Shown here: positions 4,756 through 12,966 of the stretch, one piece after another
How positions within the stretch are numbered: the stretch's first letter is position 1
Layout of the letters: the number at the start of each line of letters is the position of its first letter
Origin: Gluconacetobacter johannae
GTDB taxonomy: Bacteria > Pseudomonadota > Alphaproteobacteria > Acetobacterales > Acetobacteraceae
Assembly: GCF_014174305.1 (NCBI RefSeq)
Contig: NZ_JABEQH010000012.1
Location: 1-64,000, forward strand
Length of the DNA: 64,000 bases
Reading direction: 5' to 3'
Notes under the pieces: model-generated
Seen by the model: the letters and a program-made list of their open reading frames with translations, nothing else
Database searches by the model: none
Told to the model about the DNA's origin: nothing
Position numbers and translations under genes: made by a program

Positions 4756-5236
4756 TCGCCAGCAGCATCAGCGCGTAAATCCCGCCCAGCGCGGTCATGG
4801 ACAGCGGCAGCGCGTCGAACAGATAGGCCGGCGCGTCGCAGGGCTTGGCCGGGCGGGCGGGCATGGCGGCCAGGCGCTCGGCGAAGGTGCCGCCATGGAA
4901 GACCGGGGCCTGGCATTCCGCCAGCGGGCTGGCCCACCATCCCTGCTCCACCCCCACATGCACGCCCGACAGCACGCACGCCGCCAGCAGCACCGGTACG
5001 CACAGGCGCAGCGGCCAGCGCCGCGCCGGCGGAAACGCCGCCGCCAGCAGGCCCAGCACCAGCAGCAGGCGGTAGGGCCAGCGCTCCCACAGGCACAGGC
5101 CGCAGGGCACCATCCCCAGCACATGTTCGGCCCATTCGGCCACGCCCAGCGCCAGCGCGCCGCCACTGGCCAGGACCAGCCCCGGCCCGGCCCCCATGGT
5201 CGTCCGGCCGCGCATCCCGAATCTGCGACGCCTCAT
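4709..5236 (-). CDS. dsbB: DsbB-family disulfide bond formation protein
   Basis: This 175-residue membrane protein has the two cysteine pairs of DsbB: C45-G-L-C48 after the first membrane segment, and C108/C133 in the second periplasmic loop. Four membrane segments are evident. It would reoxidise DsbA and pass electrons to quinone. The ATG at 5236 overlaps the otsA stop in an ATGA arrangement, so translation is probably coupled. A longer frame reading back to a GTG at 5344 lies inside otsA and is rejected as the start. Placement behind trehalose genes looks like operon convenience rather than shared function. Confidence 0.88.
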   Translation of the reverse strand: MRRRRFGMRGRTTMGAGPGLVLASGGALALGVAEWAEHVLGMVPCGLCLWERWPYRLLLVLGLLAAAFPPARRWPLRLCVPVLLAACVLSGVHVGVEQGWWASPLAECQAPVFHGGTFAERLAAMPARPAKPCDAPAYLFDALPLSMTALGGIYALMLLAITMFVLGRDRRTGSR

Positions 5237-6591
5237 GCCGCGGGCGTCGCCGGGGCCGGCTGGGCCTCGTCCAGCGCCTGGAGGAAATCGCGGGCCCAGC
5301 TTCCGGCCGTGGTCCGGCGCACCTCGGCATCCAGCTTGCGCCACCGGGCCAGGCGTTCGTCCAGCCCCATCGTCAGCGCCTGGTGCAGGGCGTCCGCGAT
5401 CTCGTCCGCGTCATAGGGGTTGACCAGCACGGCCTCGTCCAGTTCGGGGGCGGCGCCCGCGAAATGCGACAGCACCAGCACCCCCGGCGATTCGGCGTCC
5501 TGCGCCGCGATATATTCCTTCGCCACCAGGTTCATGCCGTCGCGCAGGGGCGTAATCAGCGCGACATCGGCCATGCGGTAGAACCCGGCCAGGATGTCGC
5601 GGGCGATCGGCCGGGTGATGTAGCGGATGGGCGTCCAGTCGAATTCGGCATAGGCCCCGTTGATCCGCCCCGTCAGCTCGTCAAGCTGCCGGCGCAGCAC
5701 GCGATATTCCTCGACATCGCCGCGCGACACCGGGGCGACCTGCAGGAAGGTGACCTTGCCGCGATGTTCGGGATAGCGCGCGATCAGCGCCTCGTACCCC
5801 CGGAACCGCTCCGGCAGCCCCTTGGAATAATCCAGGCGGTCCACCCCCAGCACCAGGGCCGCGCCCCGCAGGCTGGCGCGCAGGCGCTCGGCCTCGCCAC
5901 TGCCGGCGCCGGTTTCGGCCTGGGCGCGGAATTCGTGCGGGTCGATGCCGATCGGGAAGGCCCGCGCCCGTTCCGTCAGCCCATTCACGCGAAAGGACTG
6001 GTTCAGGTTGTCCGCGTCCTCCTCGGTCTGCACGCCGATCAGGTCGTAGGCCTGCAGATCCTCCAGCAGCAGTTCCGCGCCCGGCAGCGACCGCACCAGG
6101 CTCCAGGGCGGGACGGGAATGTGCAGGAAGAAGCCGATGCGCGTCGTCACCCCCAGGTCGCGCAGCGCCTGCCCCAGCGGGAACAGATGATAATCATGGA
6201 CCCACACCACGTCGTCCGGCTTCAGCAGCGGTAGCAGCGTGCGCGCGAACAGGGCGTTGACCTCCAGATAGGTCTGCCAGTCGCGGCGGGAATAGTTCAT
6301 CAGCCCCACGCGGTAGTGGAACAGCGGCCAGAGGATGCCGTTGGAAAAATTCTGGTAGAATCCCTCGTGCTGGCTCTCGGTCAGGTCGATGGTGGCATAG
6401 GTCACGCCATCGACGGTGTCGAAGCTGGGCTGGGGGTCGCCGTCGCCCTCGGCCTGGTTGCCCGACCAGCCGAACCACATCGACGACCCGCCCCGCACGG
6501 CGTCCCGCAGCCCCACGGCCAGGCCGCCGGCCGGCTGCGTGCGTTCGCGCGGCGAGGGTACGCGGTTGGATACGATGACTAGACGCCCCAT
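5233..6591 (-). CDS. otsA: Trehalose-6-phosphate synthase
   Basis: This is a GT20 glycosyltransferase of 452 residues that joins UDP-glucose and glucose-6-phosphate. The N-terminus [14 protein letters not shown], the [11 protein letters not shown] motif and the [14 protein letters not shown] nucleotide-sugar motif are all typical, as is the C-terminal [15 protein letters not shown]. The length matches the family (about 450-480). Upstream otsB overlaps it by 13 bases and downstream dsbB by 4, so this is a tight otsB-otsA-dsbB operon. Trehalose is a compatible solute, which fits an organism exposed to osmotic stress. A much longer frame with the same stop extends upstream into otsB and is not the gene. 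Confidence 0.96.
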
Positions 6592-7343
6592 ACGCCGTCT
6601 CCCCCTGCCGCGAGAGTCGCCAGCCACGCCCGGAAGGCGGCCGCGTCCGGAAAATCCATCGGAATGCGGAAACCCGCCCCCCCCAGCGCCACTGCGGCGC
6701 GGATCCCGTCCTCGTCCGTGGCGTCGTCGCCGACGAAGATGGGGTGCCGCCCGGCGAAAGGCGGCGACTGCATCAGGGCCGCCACCGCATGGCCCTTGTC
6801 CACCCCGTCGGGGCGGATTTCCCAGGCCATCTTCGCCGCCTGGATGTGAAAGACGCCCCCGCTGGCCTCGACCCAGCCCTGCGCCGCGTCCAGCAGCGCG
6901 TCGGCCGCCTCGGGCGCCGCACGATAATGCAGCACGAAGCCCCCCACCTTGCGTTCGATCCGCACGCCGGGATAGCCGGCCACCAGGGTCTCGGCCCGCT
7001 GCAGCCATTCGGGCGGGACCACGGGCAGGTCGGCGCGCACGATCGGCCCGTCCGGCCGGTGCCGCACGGCAATCCCGTGCTCGCCCGCCACCGCGAAGGG
7101 CACGTCGCCCAGGAAATGGTCAATCTGCTCGACTCCCCGGCCCGAAATCACGGCCAGCGCGTCGCCGCACTTGGCGCGCAGCCGCCGCAGCACCTCCAGC
7201 AGGCCGGGCGACACCACCACCGATTCCGGGGTGGGGGCGATATCCACCAGCGTCCCGTCGAAATCCAGCAGCAGCGCCGCTTCGCCCGGCGGCGGCATGA
7301 ACCGTCCGGCCGGGCCGGCATATTCTGTCGGGGTCGTGGCCAT
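6579..7343 (-). CDS. otsB: Trehalose-6-phosphate phosphatase
   Basis: This HAD-superfamily phosphatase of 254 residues removes phosphate from trehalose-6-phosphate. The nucleophile motif LLLDFDGTLVDI stands near residue 30. AVISGRGVEQI, AVAGEHG and GDDATDEDGI, the latter carrying the metal-binding acidic residues, follow in the usual order. The ATG at 7343 is preceded by AAGGAGGT at ideal spacing. A GTG two codons earlier overlaps that ribosome site. It is the first gene of the otsB-otsA-dsbB operon. Confidence 0.94.
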   Translation of the reverse strand: MATTPTEYAGPAGRFMPPPGEAALLLDFDGTLVDIAPTPESVVVSPGLLEVLRRLRAKCGDALAVISGRGVEQIDHFLGDVPFAVAGEHGIAVRHRPDGPIVRADLPVVPPEWLQRAETLVAGYPGVRIERKVGGFVLHYRAAPEAADALLDAAQGWVEASGGVFHIQAAKMAWEIRPDGVDKGHAVAALMQSPPFAGRHPIFVGDDATDEDGIRAAVALGGAGFRIPMDFPDAAAFRAWLATLAAGGDGVWGV

Positions 7344-7400
7344 TCTCACCTCCTTGAAGTCGGTTGGCGCATGGGGCCCGCGCCGGGCGAGCCCACCCCC

Positions 7401-8261
7401 TCAAGGGGGCAAAAGCGACTGGGGCTGTCCCGGTTGCGCCTGGTCCGGCCGGGAAGATCCGGGCGCGGCCTGTCCGGCCGGCGGCAGGGGCGCCGGCAGC
7501 AGCGACAGCGGCGCCGCCCCGCCCCCGTCCGTCATGGTCGGCACGGGCGGCGGCAGAGGCACATGCTGGCCCGCAACGCCTCCGGATGCAACCGGCGCCA
7601 GCGGCATGGGCGCCGAAGATGCGGGGACCGGGGCGGCCGGAGCCGGGGCTGCGGGGGCCGGGGACACGGGGACCGGGGACACGGGCGGCGGGGCGGATGA
7701 CTCCGGCGGCAGTTGCAGGGGCGAAGACGGTACGGCCGATACCGGCGGCGGCGTCCCCGGCGCCGAGCCCGCCGGAACCACCCCCCCGGACGTCGCATCG
7801 GTCGGCGCGCCCGCCTCGGGCACGGTCAGCGGCGGCGGCACCGGGGCGACCATGTCGCCCGCACAGCCCACCATCCGCACGTCATACAGGGGGTTTTCAA
7901 ATACCCCCATGAACGGTTCGCCCGACAGCATCCAGCCGTCGAATCCCGGCACCCCCGGATGGGTGTCGCGCACCGACAGCCATCCCGCCGAATCCGGGAC
8001 CAGGCCGGGCGGCCGGTCGCGGCACGCGCCGACATGGATCGACAGCGCCTTGAACGTCACATCCTGCCCCACCGGAACCGTCAGGATCTGGACGCGGGAA
8101 TCCAGCCGGTCCAGCACGCGCAGCGTCGCGACCGACCGCCCCTGCCAGGTCTCGGCCGGATAGACCAGCGGCGGCGTCACGATCTCGGCGGCGCGGGCCG
8201 GGGGCAGCGAAAGACCGGCGGCGGACAGAAGCGCGGGCAGGGTCAGGGCCGCGCGCCGCAT
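7401..8261 (-). CDS. DUF2155 exported protein with proline/alanine-rich tail
   Basis: A signal peptide (MRRAALTLPALLSAAGLSL, cleavage near ARA-AE) is followed by a DUF2155 domain of about 110 residues. It has two conserved cysteines, in SIHVGACRDRPPG and MVGCAGD, and the FDGWMLSGEPFMGVFENPLYDVR motif. The last 120 residues are a low-complexity P/A/V-rich tail. DUF2155 proteins are alphaproteobacterial envelope proteins of unknown function that are often encoded beside NDUFA12, as here. The start at 8261 was chosen because it gives the signal peptide directly. Earlier frame positions overlap the preceding small gene. Confidence 0.85.
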   Translation of the reverse strand: MRRAALTLPALLSAAGLSLPPARAAEIVTPPLVYPAETWQGRSVATLRVLDRLDSRVQILTVPVGQDVTFKALSIHVGACRDRPPGLVPDSAGWLSVRDTHPGVPGFDGWMLSGEPFMGVFENPLYDVRMVGCAGDMVAPVPPPLTVPEAGAPTDATSGGVVPAGSAPGTPPPVSAVPSSPLQLPPESSAPPPVSPVPVSPAPAAPAPAAPVPASSAPMPLAPVASGGVAGQHVPLPPPVPTMTDGGGAAPLSLLPAPLPPAGQAAPGSSRPDQAQPGQPQSLLPP

Positions 8262-8272
8262 CGCGCGGCGCG

Positions 8273-8494
8273 TCACGATTTCGGGCTTCGCAATGCGGCC
8301 GCGACCTCCAGGATGATGCGCCTCATTTCCGCCTCGTCCACGCCGATCAGCACCGCGTCCTCGAACGTATCGCGCATGACGTCGCACAATTCGGCGTAAT
8401 TCTCGGCCAGGACGCGGATCTTGTCCTGGCAGGACACCGGGCTGCCGTCCGCCTGCCGCCAGACCGCGGGCGCGGCCGGAAGGGCGCCGCTCAC
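8273..8494 (-). CDS. Small conserved protein, function unknown
   Basis: This 73-residue acidic, mostly helical protein has two cysteines (SCQDKIR and AELCDVMRDTF) and no signal or membrane segment. I do not recognise the family. The GTG at 8494 overlaps the stop of the mlaD-like gene in a GTGA arrangement, which decides the start and points to translational coupling. It sits between the mlaD-like and DUF2155 genes, all in the same direction. The sequence looks like real coding rather than a shadow because no competing frame exists in this interval. Confidence 0.7.
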   Translation of the reverse strand: MSGALPAAPAVWRQADGSPVSCQDKIRVLAENYAELCDVMRDTFEDAVLIGVDEAEMRRIILEVAAALRSPKS

Positions 8495-9030
8495 GGCTGG
8501 TCGCCCGCAGGCGCGGCCGGGGCCTGGCCCTGGTTGGCGCGCTGCTGGTTCGCCCGGGTCATCGAATCCGTGACCGAGAAGATGAAGCGGCTGAGCAACT
8601 GTTCCAGGCTGATCGACCCCTGGGTGTCGGTAAGCGTCGCCCCCGGATGCAGCATCGCATCGTTCCCGCCCGGCGACAGGGCGACATATTTGCCCCCCAG
8701 CAGGCTGTCGCTGGTGATGATCGCGGCGCTGTCGGTCGGCAGGCGGATGTCCGGCCGCACGGTGAAGGTCACATGGGCCTTGAAGCTGGCCGGATCGACC
8801 TGCTCGTCCACCACCTGCCCCACCGTGACGCCCGCCAGGCGCACGTCCGACCCCACCGACAAGCCGTCGATATGCGCGAAGGAGGCCGCCAGCCGATATC
8901 CGCTTTCCTGCCGGTGGCCCTTGTCGATCACGGCAAAAGCCAGCAATCCGCCCAGCACCGCCAGAACCGCGCACCCCGCGGCGAGCTCGGCCGGGTTCCG
9001 GCCCCTTCTGACTGGAACCGCAGTTACCAT
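8491..9030 (-). CDS. mlaD: MlaD-like phospholipid-binding periplasmic protein (MCE domain)
   Basis: This 179-residue protein has one N-terminal membrane anchor (AAGCAVLAVLGGLLAFAVI) and an MCE/MlaD domain (GYRLAASFAHIDGLSVGSDVRLAGVTVGQV ... SLLGGKYVALSPGG). MlaD forms the hexameric ring of the MlaFEDB transporter that moves phospholipids between the membranes. The ATG at 9030 has GGGGAAG upstream. An earlier ATG at 9063 would add 11 residues before the anchor and lacks a site. mlaE, mlaF and mlaB are not in this cluster, so its partners must be encoded elsewhere. Neighbours are NDUFA12 and DUF2155, a common alphaproteobacterial arrangement. Confidence 0.88.
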   Translation of the reverse strand: MVTAVPVRRGRNPAELAAGCAVLAVLGGLLAFAVIDKGHRQESGYRLAASFAHIDGLSVGSDVRLAGVTVGQVVDEQVDPASFKAHVTFTVRPDIRLPTDSAAIITSDSLLGGKYVALSPGGNDAMLHPGATLTDTQGSISLEQLLSRFIFSVTDSMTRANQQRANQGQAPAAPAGDQP

Positions 9031-9086
9031 GATATATCGCTTCCCCTGTGACGGCTGGCGCACCCTAACAGGTTACGCCCACCGTT

Positions 9087-9455
9087 TCACCCTTCGGGAA
9101 ACCAGGCATCGTAATCGCTGGTCGAGGGCGCGCGCCGGCCGCCCCGATAGTCGCTGCCGGGGGGGCGGTAGGCCTCGGCCGTGCCGGTCCGATTCGGCTG
9201 GTAGGGCGTCTGCCACGGCTGGCGGGCGCTTTCGGGCAGCGGGGCGGCATCGACGTGATGCAGCCAGCCCCACCATTCGGGCGGCACCGCCGATGCGTCC
9301 TCGCCCTTGTGGTAGATCACCCAGCGTTCGTGCCGGGTCAGCCCGCCGCCGGTGCGGTTGGCGGTCCGCGATTCATAATAGCAACGGCCGTCGGCATCCT
9401 TGCCGACCAGACGGCCCTTGAATTTGGTGTAGATCCGGGTGCCGAGATTTGCCAT
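9087..9455 (-). CDS. NADH:ubiquinone oxidoreductase NDUFA12-family accessory subunit
   Basis: This 122-residue protein of the B17.2/NDUFA12 family starts MANLGTRIYTKFKGRLVGKD. It carries the hallmark RCYYESR, RWVIYHKGEDASAVPPEWWGWLHH and WQTPYQPNRTGT motifs. This supernumerary complex I subunit is shared by alphaproteobacteria and mitochondria and binds the peripheral arm. It is first in a leftward cluster with the mlaD-like gene, the small gene and DUF2155. The nuo operon itself is not in the window. Confidence 0.93.
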   Translation of the reverse strand: MANLGTRIYTKFKGRLVGKDADGRCYYESRTANRTGGGLTRHERWVIYHKGEDASAVPPEWWGWLHHVDAAPLPESARQPWQTPYQPNRTGTAEAYRPPGSDYRGGRRAPSTSDYDAWFPEG

Positions 9456-9653: not shown

Positions 9654-11219
9654 ATGACAGCCCGAAGCCATTGGAACGGCGTACGCATGCGTACCACGCA
9701 GGCCGCCGCGGACCCGGACGACGCCCCGCGCGCCGTCACCCTGCCCGTCGACTGGGACGACGAGGCCGCGGCCGCCCTGGCGCGCATGACGCCGGGCCAC
9801 GGCCCGGTGCGCCTGGCGACCGAGGCCGCGCGCTGGGTCGACGATATCGCGACCGGCCCCCACGCGGCGCAGGCGCGGTCGCTGTCGTGCCTGCTGATGC
9901 TGCGCCAGGCCGCGCCGGCCGAGTCGCTGTGGAGCGGCCATCACGACCGCCGTCCGGGCTTCATCGTGAACCTGGCCGGCTTCGTGCAGCCGGGGGCGGG
10001 CTTCGTCGCCGACGATTTCGTGGCCGCGCTGCGGCTGGTGTGCACCATGCTGCGCGACGCGGCCGACCGGAAGGCCGCGTGGCGCAACGGCGAACTGCCC
10101 TTCCCCGAGCCCGCCCCCCGCAAGGGGCGCAAGGTCCGGCCGGTCGAGGACGACGCCCCGCTGCTGCGGCAGGTGACGGTGGCGGGCGACCTGCTGCTGA
10201 CCAACCTCGACGCCTGCCTGGCGGCGATGGGGCTGGAGTACGACAGCGACACCGCCCGCGACGCCGCGTGCGACCTGGCGTCGCTGGCCACCCTGGTGGC
10301 CCATGCCGGCGGCGGGCCGGACGCACTGCTGCTGCCGCCGGCGCGCAGCGTGGTGCCCGGCCTGGCCGAGGCCGCCCGCGCCGTCTGGCGCGAGGCGGCG
10401 GTGGAAACCGACGCGCCGCTGCCACGAATCGACACCGGCTTTTCCACCCCCGGCCCCATCGACGCCCTGCTGGGGGTCGAGGCCTGCGGTCTGGCCCCGA
10501 TCTTCTCGCCCCTGCGGCCCGACGGGCGGCTGGCCGCCAGCACCCTGGCCCGTCTGGCGCACCGCGGCCTGTCGCCCGAGGCCGCCTTCGCCGCCGCCCT
10601 GTCGGGCGAGACCGTGCTGTCGCTGCCCGACGCGCGGGCGCATCAGGCCATGCACCGGGCGCTGGCCGGCTTCGTCGACCGGATGCCCGCCCGCCCCGAC
10701 CCGGCGGGCGTGCCGCTGCGTTCGCGCCTGGCGTGGGAACGCGGGGTGCGGCGGCACCTGCCGGCCCGCCATGGCGGCTTCACCCAGAAGGCCAGCGTCG
10801 GCGGCCACCGGCTGTTCCTGCGGACCGGCGAGTACGAGGACGGAACGCTGGGCGAGGTCGCGCTGACCCCGGCGCGCGAAAGCCCGATGACCCGCGGCCT
10901 GATGGACATGCTGGGCCAGGCCGTCAGCATCGGCCTGCAGTACGGCGCGCCGCTCGAAGCCTATGTCGATGCCTTCGCCTATACCCGTTTCGGCCCCGCC
11001 GGCACGGTCGAGGGCGATCCGGTGGCCGCCTATGCCACATCCCTGCTGGACTATGCGTTCCGGGCGTTGTCCGATGCGTACCTGGGCCGCAGGCTGCCCG
11101 ACGCACCGCACCAGGACGACATGGAAGACGCCCCGTCGCCCATGCTGCCGCTCGATTTCCCCGACGCATCCGCCGGGGCGCCCCCCCGACGGGCGGGCCG
11201 GCTGCGGCTGGTCGGCTGA
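9654..11219 (+). CDS. Orphan protein resembling the C-terminal (TSCPD) region of class II ribonucleotide reductase
   Basis: This is a 521-residue protein. Residues from about 370 to 490 closely follow the C-terminal TSCPD-type region of B12-dependent NrdJ: FTQKASVGGHRLFLRTGEYE, then AVSIGLQYGAPLEAYVDAFAYTRFGPAG and ATSLLDYAFRALSDAYLGR. The middle holds fragments such as LLLTNLDACLAAMGLEYDSD that also recall RNR alpha subunits. The catalytic barrel cysteines of NrdJ are not recognisable, and the protein is less than half the usual NrdJ length. It is therefore probably not an active reductase by itself; a regulatory or accessory role is inferred. The start is the first ATG after the candidate NrdR box; a second ATG lies 11 codons on. 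It is followed by a ridA-like gene. Confidence 0.8.
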   Translation: MTARSHWNGVRMRTTQAAADPDDAPRAVTLPVDWDDEAAAALARMTPGHGPVRLATEAARWVDDIATGPHAAQARSLSCLLMLRQAAPAESLWSGHHDRRPGFIVNLAGFVQPGAGFVADDFVAALRLVCTMLRDAADRKAAWRNGELPFPEPAPRKGRKVRPVEDDAPLLRQVTVAGDLLLTNLDACLAAMGLEYDSDTARDAACDLASLATLVAHAGGGPDALLLPPARSVVPGLAEAARAVWREAAVETDAPLPRIDTGFSTPGPIDALLGVEACGLAPIFSPLRPDGRLAASTLARLAHRGLSPEAAFAAALSGETVLSLPDARAHQAMHRALAGFVDRMPARPDPAGVPLRSRLAWERGVRRHLPARHGGFTQKASVGGHRLFLRTGEYEDGTLGEVALTPARESPMTRGLMDMLGQAVSIGLQYGAPLEAYVDAFAYTRFGPAGTVEGDPVAAYATSLLDYAFRALSDAYLGRRLPDAPHQDDMEDAPSPMLPLDFPDASAGAPPRRAGRLRLVG

Positions 11220-11264: not shown

Positions 11265-11732
11265 ATGACCGACAGCACCCCCGAAGCCCGCCTCGCCCAG
11301 CACGGCATCGTCCTGCCCACCCCGGCGGCGCCGGTCGCCAATTACGTCGCCACCGTCCTGACCGGCTCCACGCTGGTCGTCTCCGGCCAGTTGCCGCTGG
11401 TCGACGGCAAGCTGTTCGCCAGCGGCAAGCTGGGCGCGGACGTCGCCGTGGAAATCGGCGTCGAGGCCGCGCGCTACAGCATGATTAACGTCATCGCCCA
11501 GGTCCGCGCCGCGATCGGCGACCTGTCGCGGGTCAGGCGCGTGGTGCGGCTGGGCGGGTTCATCTCCTGCGTGCCCACCTTCACCCAGCATGCCACGGTC
11601 ATGAACGGCGCGTCCGACTTCGCGGTCCTGGTGTTCGGCGAGGCCGGGCGGCACGCGCGCTCAACCATCGGCGTCCCGTCCCTGCCGCTGGACGCGGCGG
11701 TCGAGGTCGAAGGCCTGTTCGAGATCGCCTGA
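11265..11732 (+). CDS. RidA/YjgF-family protein
   Basis: This 155-residue protein has the Rid fold signature. It starts with the LAQHGIVLPTPAAPVANYV region, then VVSGQLPL, RVVRLGGFISC, and the terminal RSTIGVPSLPLDAAVEVEG, which includes the conserved arginine position. RidA proteins deaminate reactive imine/enamine intermediates of PLP enzymes. This sequence resembles the longer Rid-related subgroup that starts with TPEARLAQHGI, for which deaminase activity is less certain. An AGGAGC ribosome site precedes the ATG. It follows the RNR-like gene by 45 bases and is likely co-transcribed. Confidence 0.88.
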   Translation: MTDSTPEARLAQHGIVLPTPAAPVANYVATVLTGSTLVVSGQLPLVDGKLFASGKLGADVAVEIGVEAARYSMINVIAQVRAAIGDLSRVRRVVRLGGFISCVPTFTQHATVMNGASDFAVLVFGEAGRHARSTIGVPSLPLDAAVEVEGLFEIA

Positions 11733-11802: not shown

Positions 11803-12966
11803 ATGAGCGCCCTGACACTGAGCCTGCATCGCGCCATCGCCGAGATCCCGGCGGCGGCGTGGGACGCCTGCGCGGGGCCGGACAACCCGTTCGTCGGACA
11901 CGCCTTCCTGTCGGCGCTGGAAGACAGCGGCTCAGCGGGGCCGCGCACCGGCTGGCTGCCGCAGCACGCCGCCATCCGCGACGCCGAAGGGCGCGTCGTC
12001 GCGGTGGCGCCCGCCTATGCCAAGGCGCATTCCTACGGCGAATATGTCTTCGACCAGAGCTGGGCGCGCGCGCTGGAACAGGCCGGGGGCGAGTACTATC
12101 CCAAACTGCAGGTCGCGGTGCCGTTTTCCCCGGTGCCGGGGCCACGCCTGCTGGTCCACCCCGACGCCGAGGACCCCGCCGCCCTGCGCCGCACCCTGAT
12201 CGGCGCGCTGCGCCAGGCGTGCGGCGAGCTGGGCCTGTCCTCGGTCCACGCCACCTTCTGCACCGAGGACGAATATGAGGCGTTCGGCGCCGCCGGGTGG
12301 CAGCAGCGCCTGGGCGTGCAGTTCCACTGGGACAATCGCGGCTATGCCGGCTTCGACGATTTCCTGGCCGCCCTGTCGTCACGCAAGCGCAAGATCATCA
12401 GGCGCGAACGCCGGGACGCCAACCAGTGCGGCCTGACCTTCCGCACCGTGCGCGGCGCCGACATCACGCCCGACCTGTGGGGCCATTTCTACCGGTTCTA
12501 CAGCTCGACCGTGGACCGCAAATGGGGCAGCGCCTATCTGACGCCCGATTTCTTCCCCCTGCTGTCCGACCGGCTGGGCCGGCGGGTGGTGCTGATGCTG
12601 GCCGAACGCGACGGCACACCGGTGGCGGGCGCGCTGAACCTGATGGGCGCCGACACGCTGTACGGCCGCAACTGGGGCTGCGACGGCGAATGGCCGTTCC
12701 TGCATTTCGAACTGTGCTATTACCGCGCCATCGACTTCGCCATCGCCCACGGGCTGAAACGCGTCGAGGCCGGGGCGCAGGGCCACCACAAGATCCAGCG
12801 CGGCTATCGCCCCTGCCCCACCTATTCCGCCCACTGGATCCAGCATCCCGGCCTGCGCCGCGCGGTCGCCGATTTCGTGGCCGAGGAACGCCCCCACATG
12901 CTGGCGGAAATCGCCGAGCTGGACACGCAATCGCCCTATCGCGAGGACGATGCCACGCCCGGCTGA
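11803..12966 (+). CDS. DUF482 / GNAT-fold peptidogalycan-type protein
   Basis: This 387-residue protein matches the DUF482 family, a FemABX-like double-GNAT fold. Motifs seen include PFVGHAFLSALEDSGSAG near the N-terminus, SSRKRKIIRRERRD in the middle, and GRNWGCDGEWPFLHFELCYY with RVEAGAQGHHKIQRGYRP near the end. Family members are proposed acyltransferases, but the substrate is unknown. The start at 11803 is the last ATG before the conserved N-terminus. It is the last gene in the rightward run from 9654 and ends at a family A repeat. Confidence 0.87.
   Translation: MSALTLSLHRAIAEIPAAAWDACAGPDNPFVGHAFLSALEDSGSAGPRTGWLPQHAAIRDAEGRVVAVAPAYAKAHSYGEYVFDQSWARALEQAGGEYYPKLQVAVPFSPVPGPRLLVHPDAEDPAALRRTLIGALRQACGELGLSSVHATFCTEDEYEAFGAAGWQQRLGVQFHWDNRGYAGFDDFLAALSSRKRKIIRRERRDANQCGLTFRTVRGADITPDLWGHFYRFYSSTVDRKWGSAYLTPDFFPLLSDRLGRRVVLMLAERDGTPVAGALNLMGADTLYGRNWGCDGEWPFLHFELCYYRAIDFAIAHGLKRVEAGAQGHHKIQRGYRPCPTYSAHWIQHPGLRRAVADFVAEERPHMLAEIAELDTQSPYREDDATPG

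What the first reader, a model, noticed from the sequence alone, without database searches (positions are those of the whole stretch)
9654..11219. Orphan protein built on the class II ribonucleotide reductase C-terminus
The last third follows the NrdJ C-terminal domain almost motif by motif, but the protein lacks a recognisable catalytic barrel. A free-standing TSCPD-like protein could regulate, reduce or scaffold the B12-dependent reductase, or could have taken a new role. It is next to a RidA protein.
Basis: partly seen in the sequence, partly recalled or inferred. Interest (0 to 1): 0.58.

Follow-up and report, generated by a model that had tools for sequence, protein, structure and literature searches.

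The report
Dead ribonucleotide reductase kept in place
The gene is the shrunken, catalytically dead remains of the vitamin-B12-dependent DNA-building-block enzyme, still sitting in its original place in the chromosome and still kept by selection; similar dead copies occur in many related bacterial families, so part of this enzyme seems to have a second job that nobody has described.

Summary
The ORF (521 aa, Gluconacetobacter sp.) is real. Its last third is a TSCPD domain matching NrdJ 968-1083. The radical Cys, redox Cys pair, phosphate loop and C-terminal zinc/redox cysteines are all gone: a pseudoenzyme. It is not a free-standing partner of NrdJ: this genome has only class I NrdAB; 180 of 200 Acetobacteraceae hit the protein, only 3 have a full long NrdJ. 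It sits exactly where intact NrdJ sits in other Alphaproteobacteria (DUF2155-MlaD-NDUFA12 divergent on one side, RidA-FemAB on the other): NrdJ decayed in place. Dead NrdJ derivatives occupy this locus in 13 family codes, from full length to TSCPD-only. They are under purifying selection (omega 0.02-0.29); in five, TSCPD is as conserved (78-81%) as in live NrdJ (83%) while the barrel has eroded (18-44% vs 65-72%). Best reading: NrdJ has a catalysis-independent role, carried mainly by its Cys-free TSCPD/IscU-like domain, that outlives the reductase. Partner or ligand unknown.

The parts
9654..11219 (+). pseudo-NrdJ: catalytically dead, shrunken class II ribonucleotide reductase, 521 aa
9663..9932 (+). 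N-terminal remnant (residues 4-93): matches NrdJ 12-59 (VTLPVDW / IEVPKAW) and the NrdJ AAPNSPQW motif (here AAPAESLW, residues 86-93); weak alone but colinear
   Evidence: structure covers it
9963..10517 (+). barrel remnant (residues 104-288), matches NrdJ 493-698; begins just after the place of the missing radical and redox cysteines
   Evidence: hhalign E 1.4e-14; hmmsearch of PDB sequences 1.5e-13
10638..10706 (+). remnant of the last barrel helices (residues 329-351, AHQAMHRAL), aligned with NrdJ about 861-900; weak alone
10737..11105 (+). TSCPD / IscU-like domain (residues 362-484), best conserved part, Cys-free
11109..11219 (+). disordered tail ending RLRLVG; NrdJ's zinc/redox-Cys finger is missing
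9087..9455 (-). NDUFA12 (complex I accessory subunit), divergent neighbour; the same divergent neighbour flanks intact NrdJ in other Alphaproteobacteria
8491..9063 (-). MlaD-domain protein, part of the conserved synteny block
7401..8387 (-). DUF2155 protein, part of the conserved synteny block
11265..11732 (+). RidA/YjgF-family protein, starts 45 nt downstream; also follows intact NrdJ in some other families
11803..12966 (+). FemAB-like / GNAT protein (PF04339), downstream in the same block

Best explanation
The protein is the in-place descendant of the ancestral alphaproteobacterial class II ribonucleotide reductase (NrdJ). After class I NrdAB took over ribonucleotide reduction, the gene lost about 320 residues of the barrel (with the first redox cysteine and the radical finger loop), the PTGT phosphate loop and the C-terminal zinc/redox finger. 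What remains is a compact, non-catalytic RNR fold carrying a TSCPD/IscU-like domain. SHOWN: ancestry, place, loss of every catalytic residue, purifying selection, recurrence in other families. INFERRED: the order of events, and that the protein is kept for a catalysis-independent job, carried mainly by the Cys-free TSCPD domain, which most likely works as an oligomerisation or partner-binding module and not as a redox or Fe-S unit. Which partner or ligand it binds (class I RNR, another protein, a nucleotide) is not shown. My guess, about 0.35, is a regulatory or scaffolding role in dNTP metabolism.
For: Barrel homology without TSCPD: (the N-terminal profile alone finds NrdJ frames in other Alphaproteobacteria, to 1.9e-18). 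Catalytic positions: 25 of 25 orphans lack all of them, 26 of 26 long NrdJ rows (24 distinct) and 1 short NrdJ keep all. Same locus: NDUFA12 in 25 of 26 and RidA downstream in 20 of 26 orphan loci; NDUFA12 near NrdJ in 12 of 20 NrdJ loci (one of the 12, L171, is itself dead), RidA+FemAB behind it in 2; intact NrdJ divergent to NDUFA12 in 39 of 68 families sampled one each. Selection: omega 0.03-0.29 in 12 pairs and 0.02-0.19 in 4 pairs of dead NrdJ from other families. Constraint shifted to TSCPD. Class I present; the 3 genomes with full NrdJ are among the 17 without NrdB.
Against: The TSCPD domain is not universally kept: dead NrdJs of f94, f104, f115, f121 and f176 and two divergent Acetobacteraceae forms (G428, G478) have lost it or have only a decayed trace, so either half can go. 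The gene is dispensable over time: no relative found in G444 and G256, a stop inside the match in G506 and a broken copy in G516, and three loci in other families (f136, f104, f15) have RidA directly beside NDUFA12 with nothing between. No partner, ligand, expression or phenotype is known. Domain-level IscU similarity is weak (Foldseek E 0.41; Z 5.1).
Confidence: 0.83

Rival explanations
1. A free-standing partner of NrdJ (like Pseudomonas NrdJb) that reduces or scaffolds the B12-dependent reductase.
For: It has the same IscU-like/TSCPD domain that NrdJb carries (PMC9669993 section 2.4 read). About 20 Acetobacteraceae genomes show a second, roughly 760-930 aa TSCPD frame that looks like the short NrdJ type (I read the sequence of only one such short NrdJ in full, from another family).
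Against: Own genome has no class II RNR. Full long NrdJ in 3 of 200 against 180 of 200 with the protein. No zinc/redox cysteines. It carries its own dead barrel remnant.
Confidence: 0.04
2. A slowly dying gene with no function, still open only because too little time has passed.
For: Large deletions, loss in some lineages, stop codons in a few Acetobacteraceae copies, clean loss at f136, f104 and f15 loci.
Against: Omega 0.02-0.29; open frame of 472-556 aa in 56 loci; a single 25-row clade across the family; TSCPD as conserved as in live NrdJ in 5 dead proteins of other families.
Confidence: 0.1
3. A regulator or assembly partner of class I RNR (NrdAB), keeping dNTP control after the enzyme swap.
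For: It accompanies class I RNR: NrdB in 183 of 200 family genomes, and G040, with a full-length dead NrdJ, has class I-like large subunits. RNR activity is regulated through oligomer state, and the CRD that includes this domain drives oligomerisation in S. nassauensis NrdJ (PMC5704485, passages read).
Against: The specificity-site region is deleted in the orphans (that the deleted region holds that site is recalled). g328 keeps the orphan although it has no NrdB but a live NrdJ. No interaction data.
Confidence: 0.3
4. A role unrelated to nucleotides, for example with the neighbouring RidA/FemAB or complex I genes.
For: The block is conserved over many families.
Against: The same neighbours flank intact NrdJ, and in three families the neighbours remain together after the gene is gone, so the synteny is inherited and says little about function.
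Confidence: 0.25

Closest known systems
Alphaproteobacterial long NrdJ (PRK07562 / NF005736; R. sphaeroides 7b9p, 7b9q)
   Same: Colinear domain order, same chromosomal locus, RNR barrel-type fold in residues 2-354 (Z 25.7), TSCPD 50-67% identical
   Different: 521 instead of about 1220 aa; no radical Cys, redox Cys, PTGT loop or zinc finger; remaining N-terminal and barrel regions only 16-31% identical
Pseudomonas NrdJb (split class II RNR)
   Same: Carries the IscU-like/TSCPD domain on a separate protein (per PMC9669993)
   Different: NrdJb works with NrdJa and needs C-terminal redox cysteines (PMC4520616, passages read); here no NrdJ partner and no such cysteines
Stand-alone TSCPD proteins of about 100 aa
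   Same: TSCPD outside an RNR; such small frames are seen in L005 and L006
   Different: No barrel remnant; score far better on the Pfam model (E 1e-22 to 1e-24 against 1e-9)
Inactive R1 homologues of betaherpesviruses (recalled, not tested)
   Same: Also RNR large-subunit derivatives without reductase activity, reused for another job
   Different: Class I and viral, with an unrelated function; no sequence comparison made here

Membership tests
functional class II ribonucleotide reductase (NrdJ) | radical cysteine finger loop N-x-C-x-E | tested here: not met
   absent in 25 of 25 orphans, present in 26 of 26 long NrdJ rows
functional class II ribonucleotide reductase (NrdJ) | active-site redox cysteine pair | tested here: not met
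   both columns are gaps in all 25 orphans; no invariant or 90% conserved Cys in 37 sequences
functional class II ribonucleotide reductase (NrdJ) | PTGT phosphate-binding loop | tested here: not met
   TPGP in the window protein
functional class II ribonucleotide reductase (NrdJ) | RNR barrel-type fold | tested here: met
   reduced form: Z 25.7, rmsd 3.1, 323 residues to 7b9q; model pLDDT 85.6
common descent with NrdJ | profile homology outside TSCPD plus shared locus | tested here: met
NrdJb (split class II RNR) | genome encodes NrdJa/NrdJ partner | tested here: not met
   for this genome
NrdJb (split class II RNR) | C-terminal zinc/redox cysteines | tested here: not met
   six CRD columns empty; Cys only at residues 79, 130, 188, 206, 278
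TSCPD (PF12637) | score over Pfam gathering cut-off | tested here: met
   36.9 bits against 22.8
IscU Fe-S scaffold | cysteine ligands in the IscU-like domain | tested here: not met
   no Cys in residues 362-484
IscU Fe-S scaffold | IscU fold | tested here: inconclusive
   IscU is the first hit but weak: E 0.41, Z 5.1
betaherpesvirus R1 pseudoenzymes | descent from class I R1 | not tested
   recalled analogy only

The most novel reading that the evidence does not exclude
Class II ribonucleotide reductase of Alphaproteobacteria is bifunctional. Its TSCPD/IscU-like domain carries a second, catalysis-independent function important enough that, when class I RNR replaces the reductase, the dead protein is repeatedly kept at its locus while the barrel erodes, in some lineages (f9, f98) down to TSCPD-only proteins of about 280 residues.
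Probability: 0.6. Interest if true: 0.85.

Novelty: new variant of a known kind. Interest (0 to 1): 0.74.

Why it matters
The role of the IscU-like (TSCPD) domain of class II RNRs is stated to be unreported (PMC9669993, section 2.4 read). Here is a natural experiment in at least 13 family codes where the reductase is dead but the protein is kept, in several with this domain untouched. That separates the domain's function from catalysis and lets it be tested in easily grown acetic acid bacteria that have no live NrdJ to confuse the result. It also warns annotators: some proteins called B12-dependent reductase or TSCPD-domain protein cannot be reductases.

Tried and rejected
Single-sequence searches: phmmer against PDB chains found nothing and PHROGs nothing; only family profiles reveal the barrel. 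NrdJb-like partner rejected. Fe-S scaffold rejected for lack of Cys. Horizontal acquisition or plasmid origin not supported: tblastn on plasmids found 16 records, none covering 80% of the query, the annotated ones among the ten listed being NrdJ; synteny argues for vertical descent. Neighbourhood as a clue to function rejected as inherited.

Number of independent origins of dead NrdJ is unresolved. The TSCPD tree needs 5 changes, but one clade is not rejected (p-AU 0.138), and the 497-column tree has long branches. Within f94, G204 is intact and G094 dead, which argues for at least one separate origin.

and one search counts are not pure counts of the orphan: a few weak protein hits may be short NrdJ, and two divergent orphans were missed by both and found only by profile. 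The census state 'absent' means nothing found in the stretch fetched; at a loose E of 0.1 one weak hit turned up in L211 (E about 0.01), left as absent. Eight of the 80 census loci were chosen because a candidate was already known there, or as duplicates; they are left out of the one-per-family count of 68. Family codes already fetched earlier (f1, f5, f40, f86, f91, f115, f131) are not among the 68 either. Dead state outside f1, f40 and f115 rests on motif checks and reading, not on the residue table.

Papers: TSCPD (2 papers, neither relevant by listing); ribonucleotide reductase + pseudoenzyme (3); + Acetobacteraceae (3 listed); class II ribonucleotide reductase + catalytically inactive (0); five-term RNR/horizontal/class II/Alphaproteobacteria/B12-dependent search (2); IscU-like + ribonucleotide reductase (2); nrdJ + pseudogene + alphaproteobacteria (1). 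From listings alone none describes dead bacterial NrdJ; this covers only the held library.

Full report
OBSERVATION. The frame 9654-11219 (+) encodes 521 aa. Pfam finds only TSCPD, residues 384-476, E 4.7e-9. NCBIfam aligns residues 365-480 with NrdJ 968-1083 at 146 bits, far under the 1737-bit cut-off for a whole enzyme. The window belongs to a Gluconacetobacter: the closest named locus is G. azotocaptans, 97% identical over the protein's best segment.

NO LIVE NrdJ IN THIS GENOME. The genome (3.63 Mb, 49 contigs, 99.99% complete) has one TSCPD protein, the ORF itself. It has one RNR large subunit, 647 aa, scoring 1035 bits on the class I alpha model PRK09102 (cut-off 620), and one NrdB.

DISTRIBUTION IN THE FAMILY. 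In 200 sampled genomes of the same family the protein query hits 180, the TSCPD model hits 177, a full long NrdJ scores over the cut-off in 3, all of one genus code g328, and NrdB is found in 183. The three g328 genomes are among the 17 without NrdB, yet they keep the orphan as well. Two genomes missed by the first two searches carry very divergent versions without a TSCPD match (G428, G478); G444 and G256 have none. Some family members also have a roughly 760-930 aa TSCPD frame, the length of the short NrdJ type.

A SHRUNKEN BARREL, NOT A NOVEL N-TERMINUS. An alignment of 37 family members and one of 56 were compared with alphaproteobacterial NrdJ. Whole profiles align at E 5e-52. With TSCPD removed from both sides, orphan 105-288 aligns with NrdJ 493-698 at E 1.4e-14, score 118; 30 column-shuffled NrdJ profiles reach at most 24.9 and the reversed one 15. 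A profile of residues 1-300 alone, used on 372 alphaproteobacterial genomes, finds frames of about 1200 aa, to E 1.9e-18. Against PDB sequences the family profile returns five sequences, all RNRs. AlphaFold2 gives pLDDT 85.6, pTM 0.70. The 50 best Foldseek rows are all RNRs, and VIA-align gives Z 25.7, 3.1 A, 323 residues to R. sphaeroides NrdJ over model residues 2-354.

ALL CATALYTIC RESIDUES ARE GONE. The first redox Cys, the N, C and E of the NPCSE finger loop, the second redox Cys and the six cysteines of the C-terminal finger are gaps, and PTGT is replaced, in 25 of 25 orphans tested. All 26 long NrdJ rows (24 distinct) and one short NrdJ keep every one of them; which motif does what in the enzyme is recalled from the RNR literature. 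About 320 NrdJ residues between positions 165 and 490 are missing. Cysteines in the window protein lie at 79, 130, 188, 206 and 278 only, none in the TSCPD domain.

IT IS NrdJ IN ITS ORIGINAL PLACE. Around 26 family loci the block DUF2155-MlaD-NDUFA12 lies divergent to the gene (MlaD 26 of 26, NDUFA12 25 of 26), and RidA and FemAB follow (20 and 19 of 26; families named). In other Alphaproteobacteria the divergent neighbour of NDUFA12 is NrdJ itself: 12 of 20 NrdJ loci had NDUFA12 within the stretch, and two (G086, G213) had RidA and FemAB behind NrdJ. A census built from NDUFA12 outwards (found in 328 of 387 genomes) gave, one locus per family code, 39 intact NrdJ, 6 dead, 22 with nothing found and 1 cut by a contig end, of 68. 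The live NrdJ of g328 is not at this locus (L175) and groups with the live NrdJs of other families, so it looks like a later arrival.

DEAD NrdJ IS RECURRENT. The locus carries NrdJ derivatives without the NPCSE and PTGT motifs in f1, f9, f40, f63, f94, f98, f115, f121, f146, f161, f173 and f176, and beside RidA/FemAB in f104. They range from full length (G040, f40, ending ...GLRVVGAED much as the orphans end ...LRLVG; f173, frame of 1089 aa) through about 700-960 aa to about 280-aa frames with only TSCPD (f9, f98). In f94 one genome is intact (G204) and one dead (G094). Three loci (f136, f104, f15) show RidA directly beside NDUFA12 with the gene gone. Trees: 25 orphans form one clade (100*), the live NrdJ rows another (99*), with G040 and f115 outside the live clade but on long branches. 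A 119-column TSCPD tree needs 5 changes but does not reject one clade of all dead rows (p-AU 0.138).

KEPT BY SELECTION. Nei-Gojobori omega is 0.026-0.287 in 12 pairs within Acetobacteraceae; in 11 of the 12 pairs the TSCPD part could be computed and was lower than the rest. For dead NrdJ of f121 it is 0.16-0.19, and for the TSCPD-only protein of f98 0.024; a fifth pair was saturated. Mean identity to live NrdJ: live against live gives TSCPD 83% and barrel regions 65-72%. In the dead proteins of f40, f173, f161, f146 and f63, TSCPD is 78-81% but the N-terminal and barrel regions are 18-44%. In the ten orphans tested TSCPD is 50-67% and those regions 16-31%. Against this reading, f94, f104, f115, f121 and f176 have lost or nearly lost TSCPD.

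MECHANISM. Shown: descent, locus, catalytic death, constraint. Inferred: a non-catalytic job. The domain is called IscU-like in the literature and its role 'has not been reported' (PMC9669993, section 2.4 read). The larger C-terminal domain that includes it is involved in oligomerisation and electron transfer in S. nassauensis NrdJ (PMC5704485, passages). Here the electron-transfer cysteines are gone, so oligomerisation or partner binding is what is left. Our own domain model resembles IscU only weakly (E 0.41; Z 5.1). I favour a regulatory or scaffolding role in dNTP metabolism at about 0.35, with an unrelated role next.

NOVELTY. RNR pseudoenzymes are known in viruses (recalled). I found no paper on dead bacterial NrdJ in the searches, judged from the listings. 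I call it a new variant of a known kind.

Noticed in passing
L175; G436, G510, G559 (genus code g328): Three Acetobacteraceae genomes have no NrdB match but a full NrdJ (in G559 shown to lie away from the usual locus) while keeping the dead copy: an apparent swap back to class II RNR.
   Followed up: partly
L005, L006 (family code f73): Frames of 104 and 136 aa with the best TSCPD scores of the class sample, stand-alone TSCPD proteins without an RNR part.
   Followed up: no
L251 5694-8570 (G094) and L260 (G204), family code f94: Same family: one genome with intact NrdJ, one with NPCSE changed to NSFAE and no TSCPD, a fresh case of catalytic loss.
   Followed up: partly
L194, L204, L243: RidA lies directly divergent to NDUFA12 with the NrdJ gene cleanly missing.
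   Followed up: partly
G506:C1:19450-20957, G516:C1: Two Acetobacteraceae genomes where the orphan is split, one with a TGA inside the match, one with several pieces and a TAA.
   Followed up: no
L195, L229 (f63, f146): About 810-aa frames with TSCPD about 80% identical to live NrdJ but with most of the barrel eroded: Pfam finds only TSCPD in L195, and the NrdJ profile matches L229 only in short pieces before TSCPD.
   Followed up: partly
window 5233-7349 (-): Open frames resembling a trehalose-phosphate phosphatase and synthase pair just beyond the synteny block (by eye, no family search).
   Followed up: no
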